NCBI RefSeq assembly: GCF_904846055.1
Contig: NZ_CAJGYV010000001.1
Span: forward strand, 1,178,001 to 1,242,000
Direction: 5' to 3'
From: Psychrobacter ciconiae
GTDB lineage: Bacteria; Pseudomonadota; Gammaproteobacteria; Pseudomonadales; Moraxellaceae
Length of the DNA stretch: 64,000 nt
The position numbers and the translations under genes were made by a program. The notes under the pieces were generated by a model, which was not told where the DNA came from, searched no databases, and worked only from the letters and a program-made list of their open reading frames with translations. This document shows positions 13,004 through 22,079 of the stretch, piece after piece; the first letter of the stretch is position 1, and every line of letters starts with the position of its first letter.

Positions 13004-13666
13004 TTATTTTAAAAACCCATTTTCTGCCAAAAAAGATTCTGAAATCTTTGACTGCGGCGCACTTACCAACGCATCTTTATTGAGCAAGCGCTCTAAATAG
13101 CGGGCGACGATGTCCACCTCAATATTGACCAAGCTTCCTACTTGCCAATGTTTATCAATATTGGTCACCTGAGCGGTATGCGGAATGATGTTTAAGCAAA
13201 CGATATTGCCTTTCACCAGATTGGTGGTCAGGCTGATGCCATCGACAGTGATTGAGCCTTTGGTGGCAGTGAATCGTGCCAAATCGCTTGGGATTTCGAT
13301 TTCAAAATAAATAGATCGCGCGTCTTGCTGACGCTGTTTCACAACGCCAACACCATCCACATGACCGGCGACAATATGCCCCCCAAAGCGGGTGGTTGGC
13401 AGCATCGCTTTTTCTAAATTGACCATTGACCCTGACTTTAGCTCATTTAGCGCCGTTCGGGCGATAGTTTCACGTGAAACATCGACTGAATAACTTTGGT
13501 GATTGACGGCAACGACCGTCAAGCAGATGCCATTAGAAGCGATAGAGTCACCAAGCGCCACGTCACTAAAATCCAGTGTTGGTGCGTCAATGGTCAGGCG
13601 AATGTCGCCACCGGTGGGCTGAAGGGCTTTGACAACGCCCACACTTTCAATAATCCCAGTAAACAT
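13004..13666 (-). CDS. ribE: riboflavin synthase, alpha subunit
   Basis: RibE dismutates two 6,7-dimethyl-8-ribityllumazine molecules to riboflavin. The family start MFTGIIESVG and the two lumazine-binding repeats (SIASNGICLTV near residue 41 and ITVDGISLT near 140) are visible. The 220 residues are typical of the family. It is downstream of ribD on the same strand, but a 319-base AT-rich region with DnaA boxes separates them, so it may need its own promoter. An exact parS core lies inside the gene and encodes VSRET. Confidence 0.93.
   Translation of the reverse strand: MFTGIIESVGVVKALQPTGGDIRLTIDAPTLDFSDVALGDSIASNGICLTVVAVNHQSYSVDVSRETIARTALNELKSGSMVNLEKAMLPTTRFGGHIVAGHVDGVGVVKQRQQDARSIYFEIEIPSDLARFTATKGSITVDGISLTTNLVKGNIVCLNIIPHTAQVTNIDKHWQVGSLVNIEVDIVARYLERLLNKDALVSAPQSKISESFLAENGFLK
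13467..13480. other. parS: parS-type site 4, inside ribE
   Basis: An exact GTTTCACGTGAAAC lies within ribE and is read as VSRET in the protein; 15 of 16 bases match the full consensus. Confidence 0.8.
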
Positions 13667-13719
13667 ATTCGTTTTGCCCCATCAGGTTTATGAGTAATTC
13701 TATTAATAATTTGCTAATT

Positions 13720-13981
13720 TTTGGATAACATTGTGGATAACTTTTTAAAATAACCAAATCATTCTTAAAAAAAAGCTTAAATCAAGAGTTATCCACAGTG
13801 TTTCTATAATTTTATAATTTCAATGCCAACCTAAATTTACAACTAGGTCGTTGATTAATATAATAAAAATTTTATAAAATTAGTTTTTAGCTATTTTTGG
13901 TTTCATGTGAAACCAAGTTATCCACAGCTTTTAGGTTCCATGTGAAACCTATCAAAGTTATCCCTAGCTAACATTGGATAA
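13720..13981. other. second DnaA-box cluster between ribD and ribE
   Basis: Three perfect TTATCCACA boxes lie at 13732-13740 (reverse), 13789-13797 and 13918-13926. Weaker boxes occur at 13720-13728, 13958-13966 and 13973-13981. The stretch between 13800 and 13900 is very AT-rich. Two parS-like variants (13900-13913, 13935-13948) are interleaved. The composition is that of an origin or a DnaA-binding/titration locus rather than a leader sequence. No ORF is present. Confidence 0.65.
13900..13948. other. pair of degenerate parS-like sites (CATGTG centre)
   Basis: GTTTCATGTGAAAC (13900-13913) differs from the parS core at one base. GTTCCATGTGAAAC (13935-13948) differs at two. They flank the DnaA box at 13918-13926. 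Whether ParB binds them is unknown. Confidence 0.5.
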
Positions 13982-13985
13982 CTCC

Positions 13986-15059
13986 TTAAAGTGGTTTTAA
14001 TATGAATTTTAAGTCTTTATCTAGCTTTTCAATGCTTATTAAATTAAAGCAAATCTGCTCAGACAAGTGCTCAAAGGTCAAATCTACCATCGGTCGCCCT
14101 GTAGCGCCCAGCAAGCAAGGTGCTTGATAAACTATCACTTCATCGACCAATCCTTGCGCTAAAAAGCTTGCGGCAACGCTAGCCCCAGCTTCGACCAAAA
14201 TATCATAGCACTGATGCTCTTGAACCAAACTGCCAAGCAGAGCTTTTAAGTCATCGTTTCGGTAATAAAGCGTTTCAGGGTTTTGGCAAAGATGGTAAGG
14301 GGAGTTCTCAGCAAATCCTAGGCGCTCACGGCGGTCTAAAATTACCACTTTAGGCGTTGGAATGTCCTCAAGATTGACCCCCATCGGGGCAGTGCGCACA
14401 TTTAATTGCGGGTTGTCTTGAATGACTGTTTCGCTTCCGGTGATGATGGCGCCGCTTTTGGCGCGAAGGCTTTGCACATCAAGCCGCGCAGCCGTTCCGG
14501 TAATCCATTTCGACTCGCCGCTTTTCATGGCGGTTCGACCGTCAAGACTTGTGGCGATTTTTAGGCGAACATAAGGCAGGTTTTGGCGCATGGCTTTTAA
14601 AAAGCCTTGATTGAGCGCTTCTGCAAGTTCGGTTAATACACCGACGGTGACCTCAATGCCCGCGTTTTCAAGCAGTTTGACGCCGCGACCGGCAACTTTT
14701 GGGTTAGGGTCAAGCCCTGCAATGACCACGCGGCGAACACCGGCGTCAATCAGCGCTTTGGCACAAGGCGGCGTTCGACCGGTATGACTGCACGGCTCAA
14801 GGGTGACGTAGGCAGTAGCGCCGTTCGCTAACTTGCCTGAATCTTGTAGCGCAAAGACTTCAGCGTGCGGCATTCCTGCCTTTGGATGAAAGCCTTTGCC
14901 TATAACCTTATCTTCTTTGACGATCACGCAGCCGACCGCCGGATTGGGGCGCGCGGTAAATTGTCCAAGCTTGGCTTGCTCTATCGCCAGTGTCATAAAA
15001 TAATTATCACAAGCGGCGCGTGGGTCGGTTTTTTCAGTTTTGCCACTGGTAAACGTCAT
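13986..15059 (-). CDS. ribD: bifunctional diaminohydroxyphosphoribosylaminopyrimidine deaminase / 5-amino-6-(5-phosphoribosylamino)uracil reductase
   Basis: RibD carries out the second and third steps of riboflavin synthesis. The N-terminal cytidine-deaminase-like domain has the zinc ligands in PHAEVFAL and PCSHTGRTPPC, plus the ARPNPAVGCV substrate loop. The C-terminal half is a DHFR-like reductase (IATSLDGRTAMKSGESKWITG). ATG at 15059 is chosen because AAAGGA lies 7 bases upstream; the longer reading would need TTG at 15083. That gives 357 residues, normal for the family. It is 50 bases downstream of nrdR, the usual nrdR-ribD order. Confidence 0.93.
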   Translation of the reverse strand: MTFTSGKTEKTDPRAACDNYFMTLAIEQAKLGQFTARPNPAVGCVIVKEDKVIGKGFHPKAGMPHAEVFALQDSGKLANGATAYVTLEPCSHTGRTPPCAKALIDAGVRRVVIAGLDPNPKVAGRGVKLLENAGIEVTVGVLTELAEALNQGFLKAMRQNLPYVRLKIATSLDGRTAMKSGESKWITGTAARLDVQSLRAKSGAIITGSETVIQDNPQLNVRTAPMGVNLEDIPTPKVVILDRRERLGFAENSPYHLCQNPETLYYRNDDLKALLGSLVQEHQCYDILVEAGASVAASFLAQGLVDEVIVYQAPCLLGATGRPMVDLTFEHLSEQICFNLISIEKLDKDLKFILKPL

Positions 15060-15109
15060 AGTTATTCCTTTATTTAACGGCAAAGCTATCGCTGATTACA
15101 AAGTCGCCA

Positions 15110-20299: not shown

Positions 20300-20570
20300 G
20301 CTGAAATTTGTCAAAAAACGCGTTTTTCAATAATAATAAGGTTTATTAATATAATATATCTTGTTGTTGTTGGTACCTTGATTTTCTGTGGTTAAGTCGT
20401 TATTTCTATTAATTATCAAAAGGTTACGCTATGGGTAACCCTGTGGATATCTTGTGGATGAATTGTGGGTAACTCGACTTTTATTATTGACTGAAAGTTA
20501 TCCCCAAAGTTATTCACAGGGTTATCCCCAAGGTTATCCACAGAAAATGGCTATGTTATCCACAGGCAAA
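20300..20570. other. oriC: oriC: DnaA-box array with AT-rich segment between rpmH and dnaA
   Basis: Perfect TTATCCACA boxes lie at 20534-20542 and 20556-20564, with TTATTCACA at 20510-20518. Near-boxes TTATCCCCA are at 20498-20506 and 20522-20530. Reverse boxes are at 20442-20450, 20453-20461 and 20464-20472. An AT-rich stretch at about 20325-20372 is a candidate unwinding element. Position beside dnaA and the switch of gene direction support this as the chromosomal origin. The gap contains no gene. Confidence 0.88.
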
Positions 20571-20663: not shown

Positions 20664-22079
20664 ATGATAGACACCACGCTAATTTGGGATAAATGCCTAG
20701 AAGACTTACGTTATAGCGTCAAAGATAATGTCTTTACTATGTGGCTACGACCCTTGTCTGCCAAGCAAGAAGGCAAAAATTTAATCATTCGTGCCCCTAA
20801 TGATTATTTTGTTGCTTATATCCAAAAGCATCACTTAGCCGACATCAAAACGCTTGCTCTCAAACACAGCCAAGGTGAGATTGAGGAGGTGATTGCTTGT
20901 GTTGATAACCATCAAAATGCAGCGCCCTTTGTTGAGGCTTCAGCTTACGATACTGAAGAGATTCCAAAGAATATCATTGATGATAAAGTTCCTAAAATCA
21001 ACGAGATAGACAGGAGTTTTGCTCAAGCGGTCGCTGATGATGCGGCAGAAGCCAAGTCGTTAAGCTATCTAAACCCAGAGTTTACTTTTGATACGTTTGT
21101 GACCGGAAAGTCCAACCAGCTAGCTTACAAGGCATGTTTTGAGTTGAGCAAACGTCAGCCAAAGAATCGCCACAATCCATTATTTATTTATGGACCTTCT
21201 GGATTAGGAAAAACGCATTTAATGCATTCAGTAGCAGATTGCTATGTCAAAATGAATAAGAGTTTTTATTATTTCACTTCTGAGAAATTTATTAATCAAT
21301 TGGTTTATTCATTAAGAAATAATAAAGTCGAAGCTTTTAAGAAAAAAATAAAAAAGGTAGATTTGTTAATTGTTGATGATATTCATGTCTTAGCAGGAAA
21401 AACCAAAAGCAGCAATGAGTTTTTAACTTTGTTTGCTGATTTTACGAGTGGTGATAAGCAGTTGATTTTGGCATCTGATCGCCATCCTTCACAAATGACA
21501 GAATTTGATGAGCGCTTTCGGTCGCGCTTTTCTTGGGGATTGACAGTTGCCGTTGAGCCGCCGGAAATCGATACGCGGATGCAGATTTTGCAAAAAAAGG
21601 CAGCACTGCATCAAATGGTGTTGCCAAGAGAGTGTGCGTTATTTATTGCGCAAAACGTGGTTTCTAATGTTAGGCGGCTTGAGGGGGCGCTCAATCAAGT
21701 ATTTGCCAATGCCAATTTGACCGGAGCGCCGATCACCCTTGAGATGGTTCAGTTTGCGCTCAAGGATGTGGTCGCGATGCGTGTTCAGGCGGTCAATATG
21801 GACAACATCCGTAAGGTGGTGGCGGAATATTACAATGTCAGTGTCAAAGACATCATGGGTCGCAAACGCACGCGGCAGATTGCTAGACCAAGACAGATTG
21901 CTATGGCGCTGGCTCGGGAGTTGACGGGGGATAGTTTTCCGGATATTGGTCAGTCGTTTGGCGGTCGTGATCATACGACAGTGATGCATGCTTGTGATAA
22001 AGTTGCCGAGCTGCGGGCTTGCGACCCGAACATTGATAAGGATTACAAAGCGCTGTCGCTCATGCTACAAGCAGGCTGA
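20664..22079 (+). CDS. dnaA: chromosomal replication initiator protein DnaA
   Basis: DnaA binds the boxes in oriC and melts the origin. The 471-residue protein shows the N-terminal DnaB/HobA-interacting domain, a linker (about 90-140), the AAA+ core with GPSGLGKT (177-184) and LLIVDDIHVL (Walker B, 234-243), and the C-terminal box-binding domain with GRDHTTVMHACDKV. AGGAAAGAG lies upstream of the ATG. The stretch 21170-21430, in the AAA+ core, is markedly richer in A and T than the flanks while the protein stays canonical. Confidence 0.97.
   Translation: MIDTTLIWDKCLEDLRYSVKDNVFTMWLRPLSAKQEGKNLIIRAPNDYFVAYIQKHHLADIKTLALKHSQGEIEEVIACVDNHQNAAPFVEASAYDTEEIPKNIIDDKVPKINEIDRSFAQAVADDAAEAKSLSYLNPEFTFDTFVTGKSNQLAYKACFELSKRQPKNRHNPLFIYGPSGLGKTHLMHSVADCYVKMNKSFYYFTSEKFINQLVYSLRNNKVEAFKKKIKKVDLLIVDDIHVLAGKTKSSNEFLTLFADFTSGDKQLILASDRHPSQMTEFDERFRSRFSWGLTVAVEPPEIDTRMQILQKKAALHQMVLPRECALFIAQNVVSNVRRLEGALNQVFANANLTGAPITLEMVQFALKDVVAMRVQAVNMDNIRKVVAEYYNVSVKDIMGRKRTRQIARPRQIAMALARELTGDSFPDIGQSFGGRDHTTVMHACDKVAELRACDPNIDKDYKALSLMLQAG

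What the first reader, a model, noticed from the sequence alone, without database searches (positions are those of the whole stretch)
13720..13981. Second origin-like DnaA-box cluster inside the ribD-ribE gap
Three perfect TTATCCACA boxes plus weaker ones lie in a 262-bp AT-rich region with two parS-like variants, 6.7 kb from the dnaA-linked oriC. It interrupts a normally tight ribD-ribE pair. It could be part of a bipartite origin, a DnaA-titration site, or a regulatory locus coupling flavin genes to replication.
Basis: partly seen in the sequence, partly recalled or inferred. Interest (0 to 1): 0.72.

Follow-up and report, generated by a model that had tools for sequence, protein, structure and literature searches.

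The report
Conserved DnaA–ParB site beside replication origin
A short stretch of DNA a few thousand bases from the replication start point of Psychrobacter carries a fixed pattern of binding sites for the replication-starting protein DnaA, laid against sites for the chromosome-moving protein ParB, and it is kept in nearly every relative examined in three neighbouring genera, so it probably helps time copying or moving of the chromosome.

Summary
The 319-bp ribD–ribE spacer holds three perfect DnaA boxes, weaker ones and two imperfect parS sites, 6.4–6.8 kb from a normal dnaA-linked oriC. It is not chance: 99 of 100 Psychrobacter genomes keep an inverted box pair there, 57–59 bp apart in 97 of 98 measured; so do 23 of 25 loci of two sister genera. 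Box 2 sits in a conserved parS–box–parS cassette; an IHF-like site precedes box 3 in 71 of 99 (4 expected). A strict parS-abutting-box pattern hit 6 of 390 genomes of the order, all Psychrobacter, all at this locus, though not the window's own looser copy. Origin hallmarks are in the dnaA-linked region, not here. The array stays when ribE moves away, so flavin regulation is unlikely. Best reading: an origin-proximal control site where DnaA, IHF and ParB meet, like Caulobacter's DnaA-binding centromere and/or E. coli datA. No binding or mutant data exist; the mechanism is inferred. No paper on it turned up.

The parts
13973..13981 (-). weak DnaA box TTATCCAAT (2 mismatches), place of box 1
   Evidence: read; box 1 is perfect in many relatives
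13958..13966 (+). weak DnaA-like box TTATCCCTA (2 mismatches)
   Evidence: read
13935..13948 (+). parS-like GTTCCATGTGAAAC (2 mismatches to GTTTCACGTGAAAC), 8 bp from box 2
   Evidence: cassette conserved in 99-genome alignment
13918..13926 (+). perfect DnaA box 2, between the two parS sites
13900..13913 (+). parS-like GTTTCATGTGAAAC (1 mismatch), 4 bp from box 2
13844..13856 (-). IHF-like site AATCAACGACCTA (1 mismatch to WATCARNNNNTTR)
   Evidence: read; exact consensus in 71 of 99 Psychrobacter arrays against 4.0 expected
13789..13797 (+). perfect DnaA box 3 of the core pair
   Evidence: 1.98 bits of 2
13732..13740 (-). perfect DnaA box 4 of the core pair, 57 bp from box 3
   Evidence: 2.00 bits of 2
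13720..13728 (-). DnaA box TTATCCAAA (1 mismatch), 12 bp beyond box 4
13986..15083 (-). ribD, whose 3' end borders the array
   Evidence: Pfam RibD_C and deaminase
13004..13666 (-). ribE (riboflavin synthase), next gene here, not always in relatives
   Evidence: Pfam Lum_binding; displaced in L131, L233
20323..20564 (.). dnaA-linked oriC: unstable AT-rich stretch and a run of DnaA boxes at 12-bp spacing
20664..22079 (+). dnaA
   Evidence: Pfam Bac_DnaA, Bac_DnaA_C

Best explanation
The ribD-ribE spacer is a non-coding, origin-proximal control element, probably not an origin and not a rib promoter. Shown by sequence: DnaA-box positions in the order + - - + (read in the ribE direction), a rigid box3/box4 pair, an IHF-like site in the AT-rich stretch between boxes 2 and 3, and parS sites next to box 2. 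Inferred: DnaA binds boxes 3/4 and 1/2, IHF bends the DNA so the two pairs come together, and DnaA on box 2 helps or hinders ParB on the parS sites beside it. The element lies about 7 kb from oriC and doubles at once when the origin fires, so it would sense DnaA just after initiation and pass that on, by taking up or converting DnaA and by gating ParB loading on the new origin, so that initiation and origin segregation follow one another.
For: Core pair (each box up to 1 mismatch) in 99 of 100 Psychrobacter genomes, spacing 57-59 bp in 97 of 98 measured, and in 23 of 25 sister-genus loci. Conserved bases fall on boxes and parS: 1.98/2.00 bits for boxes 3/4, 1.76-1.85 for the parS-box-parS cassette, mean 0.77 over 343 columns (boxes 3/4 were the anchor for picking the 99, the cassette was not). 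parS at up to 2 mismatches: 2-3 copies in 95 of 99 arrays; a loose half-parS within 4 nt of a box-like word in 86 of 99 and 14 of 23. One species (L048) has the 27-bp parS+box unit repeated. IHF consensus in 71 of 99 against 4.0 expected and 7 of 23 against 0.9. The strict parS/box word was found in 6 of 390 genomes of the order, all Psychrobacter (6 of 12 sampled), each once and about 290-350 bp before ribE. Box3-box4 spacing is 47-48 or 57-60 in the sister loci, about one helical turn apart, with two to three switches on a tree. One ParB_N gene and IHF-alpha-like genes exist. Precedent: C. crescentus DnaA binds its parS centromere, 8 kb from ori (PMC6667618, PMC6399470, passages).
Against: No binding, ChIP or mutant data. 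5 of 23 sister arrays and 2 of 99 Psychrobacter arrays have no parS at this cut-off, so ParB cannot be needed for whatever the boxes do there. The array parS sites are imperfect (1-2 mismatches) while ten perfect parS lie elsewhere in the window. The window's own copy is looser than the genus norm: parS 4 and 8 bp from box 2, so the strict word misses it, and its IHF site has one mismatch. Sampled g10 genomes G108 and G122 also miss the strict word. L117 has lost the array and L130 and G096 lack box 4. The 99-genome counts are not independent. The best IHF-alpha match scored 115.6 bits, under the 120.25 cut-off.
Confidence: 0.5

Rival explanations
1. Pure DnaA-control site of the datA/DARS kind: IHF-bent DnaA boxes take up DnaA or switch its nucleotide state; the parS sites are there only because this is the ParB-rich origin domain.
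For: Boxes are kept where parS is missing (5 of 23 sister arrays); DnaA boxes plus an IHF site is the datA recipe (PMC10950094, PMC4585315, passages); three of the genome's 33 perfect boxes are here.
Against: datA lies at 94.7 min in E. coli, far from oriC (recalled), not beside it; the parS-box unit is very regular in Psychrobacter for something incidental.
Confidence: 0.27
2. Second module of a bipartite or looped origin: the distal array joins the dnaA-linked oriC across 6.4-6.8 kb, or itself unwinds.
For: The stretch at 13830 is as unstable as the oriC stretch at 20323 (99.8 and 99.6 percentile of the window); both clusters are conserved; one genome of another family has a box cluster after mnmE, and two putative origins were tested in P. 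aeruginosa (title in a reference list only).
Against: Runs of three or more same-strand boxes at 11-13 bp: 39 of 41 oriC gaps, 0 of 57 ribD-ribE gaps; TAR trios in 30 of 41 oriC gaps (8.9 expected) but 5 of 57 ribD-ribE gaps (10.2 expected). Known bipartite origins span up to about 2 kb and the unwinding element is never in the midst of a box cluster (PMC4285127, passages). The four-fold-site skew test gave no clear answer either way.
Confidence: 0.12
3. Relic of an ancestral box cluster behind mnmE, now without a job.
For: A box cluster follows mnmE in L250 (family f21), and here the array follows mnmE-nrdR-ribD.
Against: Near-invariant boxes in diverged DNA argue for present selection; 0 of 12 loci from other Moraxellaceae genera have a cluster of three boxes behind mnmE, so continuity is not shown.
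Confidence: 0.06
4. DnaA-controlled expression of ribE or ribD.
For: Position before ribE in most genomes.
Against: ribE 4.4 kb away in L131 and on another contig in G145/L233, array kept; box4-ribE distance 26-685 bp; no - strand promoter or terminator match in 13500-14200; no Rfam match in the window.
Confidence: 0.03

Closest known systems
Caulobacter crescentus DnaA-binding parS centromere (Mera et al. 2014; seen through passages of two later papers)
   Same: DnaA sites at parS, 7-8 kb from the origin; would link DnaA activity to segregation.
   Different: Another class of bacteria; here a fixed array of boxes with an IHF-like site and parS right beside a box; no segregation data.
E. coli datA (DDAH)
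   Same: Several DnaA boxes plus an IHF site, non-coding, conserved.
   Different: datA is far from oriC and I know of no parS there (recalled); its box order was not compared here; no ATP-hydrolysis test.
E. coli DARS1/DARS2
   Same: Non-coding DnaA-box cluster; IHF sites in DARS2.
   Different: Core of three boxes and Fis sites in DARS2 (PMC4585315, passages); not compared by alignment here.
Bipartite oriC (B. subtilis, H. pylori)
   Same: Two conserved DnaA-box clusters near dnaA.
   Different: 6.4-6.8 kb and several genes apart here; the array lacks two of three origin sequence features tested.
Box cluster behind mnmE in L250 (family f21, which I take for Pseudomonas-like); P. aeruginosa second putative origin (title only)
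   Same: Second cluster on the same side of dnaA, next to mnmE.
   Different: No parS-like site there at up to 1 mismatch; orthology not shown.

Membership tests
DnaA-binding centromere (Caulobacter type) | DnaA boxes at parS within about 10 kb of the origin | tested here: met
   (parS imperfect)
DnaA-binding centromere (Caulobacter type) | DnaA binds there and is needed for segregation independent of replication | not testable with these tools
   needs ChIP and DnaA depletion
datA | DnaA boxes with an IHF site between them | tested here: met
   71 of 99 arrays with exact IHF consensus; window's own site 1 mismatch
datA | box order and spacing of boxes 2, 3, 7 around the IHF site | not tested
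   no E. coli datA sequence was aligned
datA | stimulates DnaA-ATP hydrolysis | not testable with these tools
   biochemistry needed
DARS | three-box core, ADP release from DnaA | not tested
   no alignment to DARS; biochemistry needed
oriC / bipartite oriC | runs of boxes at about 12 bp | tested here: not met
   0 of 57 ribD-ribE gaps have three or more; 39 of 41 oriC gaps do
oriC / bipartite oriC | DnaA-trio-like repeats | tested here: not met
   5 of 57, expected 10.2
oriC / bipartite oriC | AT-rich unstable stretch | tested here: met
   99.8 percentile in window; three other places are less stable, so not specific
oriC / bipartite oriC | replication starts there | tested here: inconclusive
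   four-fold skew test unclear
chromosomal parS | palindrome bound by ParB near oriC | tested here: inconclusive
   1-2 mismatches in the 14-bp core; the asymmetric CACATG form is the conserved one; no binding data

The most novel reading that the evidence does not exclude
A dedicated DnaA-IHF-ParB switch: one small DNA element, kept across Psychrobacter and two sister genera, in which the replication initiator and the centromere protein bind neighbouring, often touching, sites, so that occupancy by one reports on or blocks the other and origin firing is tied to origin segregation. It would be a gammaproteobacterial counterpart, in a new build, of the Caulobacter DnaA-binding centromere.
Probability: 0.4. 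Interest if true: 0.78.

Novelty: new variant of a known kind. Interest (0 to 1): 0.62.

Why it matters
How bacteria tie origin firing to origin movement is still largely open outside a few models. A conserved site where DnaA boxes and parS lie side by side gives one small, deletable piece of DNA on which that link can be tested in tractable cold-adapted bacteria. It also warns that origin prediction by box clusters alone could pick the wrong place in this family.

Tried and rejected
Flavin-gene regulation was rejected (arrays without ribE beside them; no promoter match). A structured RNA or riboswitch was not supported: no Rfam match in the window at gathering thresholds; I ran no covariation test on the spacer. 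A skew test of which cluster is the origin gave mixed signs by gene and decides nothing. I first thought that the second box pair 7 kb from oriC in Acinetobacter-type genomes was the same element; one search showed it lies on the other side of oriC, so it is separate. The box2-box3 distances show no clear helical phasing; only the box3-box4 jump does. Orthology with the cluster behind mnmE is only a lead. Names for unnamed genera and families (g10 Moraxella-like, g15 Acinetobacter-type, f21 Pseudomonas-like) come from no call; they are my inference. The reading frame behind that f21 cluster I take for MnmG by its start, untested. Motif consensus sequences for DnaA box, parS and DnaA trio and the base-stacking energies are recalled; the IHF consensus stands in PMC4585315, and I also allowed G at its sixth base. 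The named loci and the G genomes overlap, so they are not two independent samples. Left untested for lack of sequence: L132 (ribE contig without ribD) and L234 (contig ends inside ribD). G146 was not examined further.

Full report
What is there. Leftwards from dnaA (20664-22079, +) come rnpA, yidD, yidC, mnmE, nrdR, ribD and ribE on the - strand. Between ribD and ribE lie 319 bp with three perfect DnaA boxes (13732 -, 13789 +, 13918 +), one at one mismatch (13720 -), two at two mismatches (13958, 13973), and two parS-like sites at 13900 and 13935 on either side of the box at 13918, 4 and 8 bp from it.

Is it more than chance? The genome has 33 perfect boxes; three within 322 bp has a chance of about 1e-8 at a given place (my arithmetic). 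In 24 Psychrobacter loci with both regions in view there are 71 perfect boxes in 11 kb of ribD-ribE spacer, 92 in 24 kb before dnaA and 40 in the remaining 454 kb.

Conservation in the genus. All 32 named Psychrobacter loci carry at least three boxes at up to one mismatch there, and none of the 48 other loci returned (46 Acinetobacter-type, 2 Pseudomonas) has a perfect box in the 800 bp before ribE. In 100 genomes of the genus (sequences; these include the window's own and overlap the named ones) an inverted pair, box 3 (-) and box 4 (+), each at up to one mismatch and 44-62 bp apart, was found in 98 within 720 bp of ribE and in 99 within 900 bp. The exception, G096, keeps boxes 1 to 3; in G080 the array lies further out (box 4 at -685). 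Spacing is 58 or 59 bp in 93, 57 in 4 and 45 in 1 of the 98. In an alignment of 99, boxes 3 and 4 carry 1.98 and 2.00 bits and the cassette GTTTCACATGAAAC-TGTGtATAA-cTTt-GTTTCACATGAAAC 1.76-1.85, against a mean of 0.77 over 343 columns. Boxes 3 and 4 were the anchor by which the 99 were cut out, so their score is a little favoured; the cassette was not. In most of these genomes box 2 reads TTATACACA or TTATGCACA on its own strand, which still fits the R-box consensus TTWTNCACA (PMC4585315); in the window it is perfect.

Sister genera. Of 25 loci of genera g10 and g7 with ribD and ribE in view, 23 have the pair; L130 lacks box 4 and L117 lacks the array. A MnmE tree puts g7, Psychrobacter and g10 on one side of a 100/100 branch and the two outgroup rows on the other, so the array was probably in their common ancestor, and L117 lies inside as a loss. 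In these sister loci the box 3-box 4 distance is 47-48 or 57-60, with two to three switches on the tree: about one turn of the helix, as expected if two bound proteins must face the same side. This rests on few events, and one Psychrobacter has 45.

Not tied to ribE. In g7 genome G150 (L131) the array stays behind ribD while ribE lies 4.4 kb further. In G145 ribE is on another contig, another reading frame follows, and the boxes (two perfect, two at one mismatch) and three parS-like sites remain behind ribD (L233). The box 4-ribE distance runs from 26 to 685 bp. A consensus scan of 13500-14200 found three promoter-like matches, all on the + strand (2.1 expected), and no terminator.

Not built like an origin. 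The region before dnaA has an AT-rich unstable stretch and runs of boxes at 12 bp. Over 41 oriC gaps and 57 ribD-ribE gaps (L117 included), runs of three or more same-strand boxes (up to 2 mismatches) at 11-13 bp occur in 39 and 0, and TAR trios in 30 (8.9 expected) and 5 (10.2 expected). Against this, the array's middle is as unstable as the oriC stretch (99.8 and 99.6 percentile), and a four-fold-site skew test did not settle the start point. I therefore lower but do not exclude a role in a split origin.

IHF and ParB. WATCARNNNNTTR occurs in the 130 bp before box 3 in 71 of 99 Psychrobacter arrays (4.0 expected from shuffles) and 7 of 23 sister arrays (0.9); the window's own copy at 13844-13856 has one mismatch. 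parS-like sites (up to 2 mismatches) number 2 or 3 in 95 of 99 Psychrobacter arrays (none in 2) and 0-4 in sister arrays (none in 5 of 23). Of the window's 16 parS-like sites only these two start within 20 bp of a DnaA box; the next closest is 39 bp from a one-mismatch box. In L048 the 27-bp parS+box unit is repeated. The strict word GTTTCAYRTGRAAC + 0-6 nt + TGTGNATAA occurs in 6 of 390 genomes of the order (1 of 142 genera): six of the 12 Psychrobacter sampled, each once, just before ribE. It does not match the window's own copy (8 bp between) nor the two g10 genomes sampled, so it measures the Psychrobacter form, not the whole element. The genome encodes one ParB_N protein over the cut-off and IHF-alpha-like proteins, the best a little under the cut-off.

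How it may work. Shown: the sites, their order, spacing and conservation. Inferred: binding by DnaA, IHF and ParB, bending, and the coupling. With box 2 and parS 0-8 bp apart, the two proteins could hardly ignore each other. The closest working precedent is C. crescentus, where DnaA binds the parS centromere, 8 kb from the origin, and is needed for partitioning (PMC6667618 and PMC6399470, passages; the original paper is not held). The closest build is datA, DnaA boxes with an IHF site (PMC10950094, PMC4585315, passages). Near-origin DnaA boxes are also held to favour titration in E. coli (PMC12371093, abstract and passages). I give 0.5 to a joint DnaA-ParB control site, 0.27 to plain DnaA control, 0.12 to an origin part.

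Wider look. Of 20 dnaA regions (12 from other Moraxellaceae genera, 8 from other families; chosen by me from 44 genomes searched), 4 have a further cluster of three or more boxes (up to 1 mismatch) in 350 bp away from oriC: one Acinetobacter-type on the dnaN side, one of family f21 behind mnmE, and two others. None of these clusters has a parS-like site (up to 1 mismatch) in it. A second box cluster within several kb of oriC is thus not unheard of; this composite build was seen, in what I searched, only in the three genera.

Novelty. Searches for bipartite oriC/DnaA box/Moraxella (9 of 9 papers listed), Acinetobacter/replication origin/DnaA boxes/oriC (11 of 11 listed) and Psychrobacter/DnaA box/parS (20 of 387 listed; the one with all three terms is on a plasmid) showed no title or abstract on this locus; I opened few of them, and most subscription papers are not held. 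I file it as a new variant of a known kind: a DnaA-box control element outside oriC, here fused with parS.

Noticed in passing
L151-L156, L160, about 570-720 bp downstream of gyrB: Some Acinetobacter-type genomes have another inverted DnaA-box pair about 7 kb on the opposite side of oriC, with repeated TTTAAATTYAAA words and no parS. Seven loci of that genus not chosen for it (L238-L244) lack the pair and the repeats; L240 has three perfect boxes further out.
   Followed up: partly
L250, about 130-450 bp after mnmE: A genome of family f21 has four DnaA boxes at up to 1 mismatch (one perfect) between mnmE and a frame that looks like mnmG, the place that would correspond to an E. coli-type origin (correspondence recalled).
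   Followed up: partly
G000:C1:2188060-2188362: The only ParB_N match lies about 1 Mb from the parS-rich origin region, whereas parAB is commonly near oriC (recalled).
   Followed up: no
window 13467-13480: A perfect parS lies inside the ribE coding sequence; ten perfect parS sites lie within about 58 kb around oriC, and at up to 1 mismatch to GTTTCAYGTGAAAC none was found elsewhere in the genome.
   Followed up: no
G146 (g10, one contig): A genome rated complete gave no ribE hit and only a weak partial hit for mnmE; it could test whether the array survives without both genes.
   Followed up: no
L117, ribD-ribE gap: One g10 species has a 168-bp gap with no DnaA boxes, a nested loss on the MnmE tree; its oriC gap has six perfect boxes.
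   Followed up: partly
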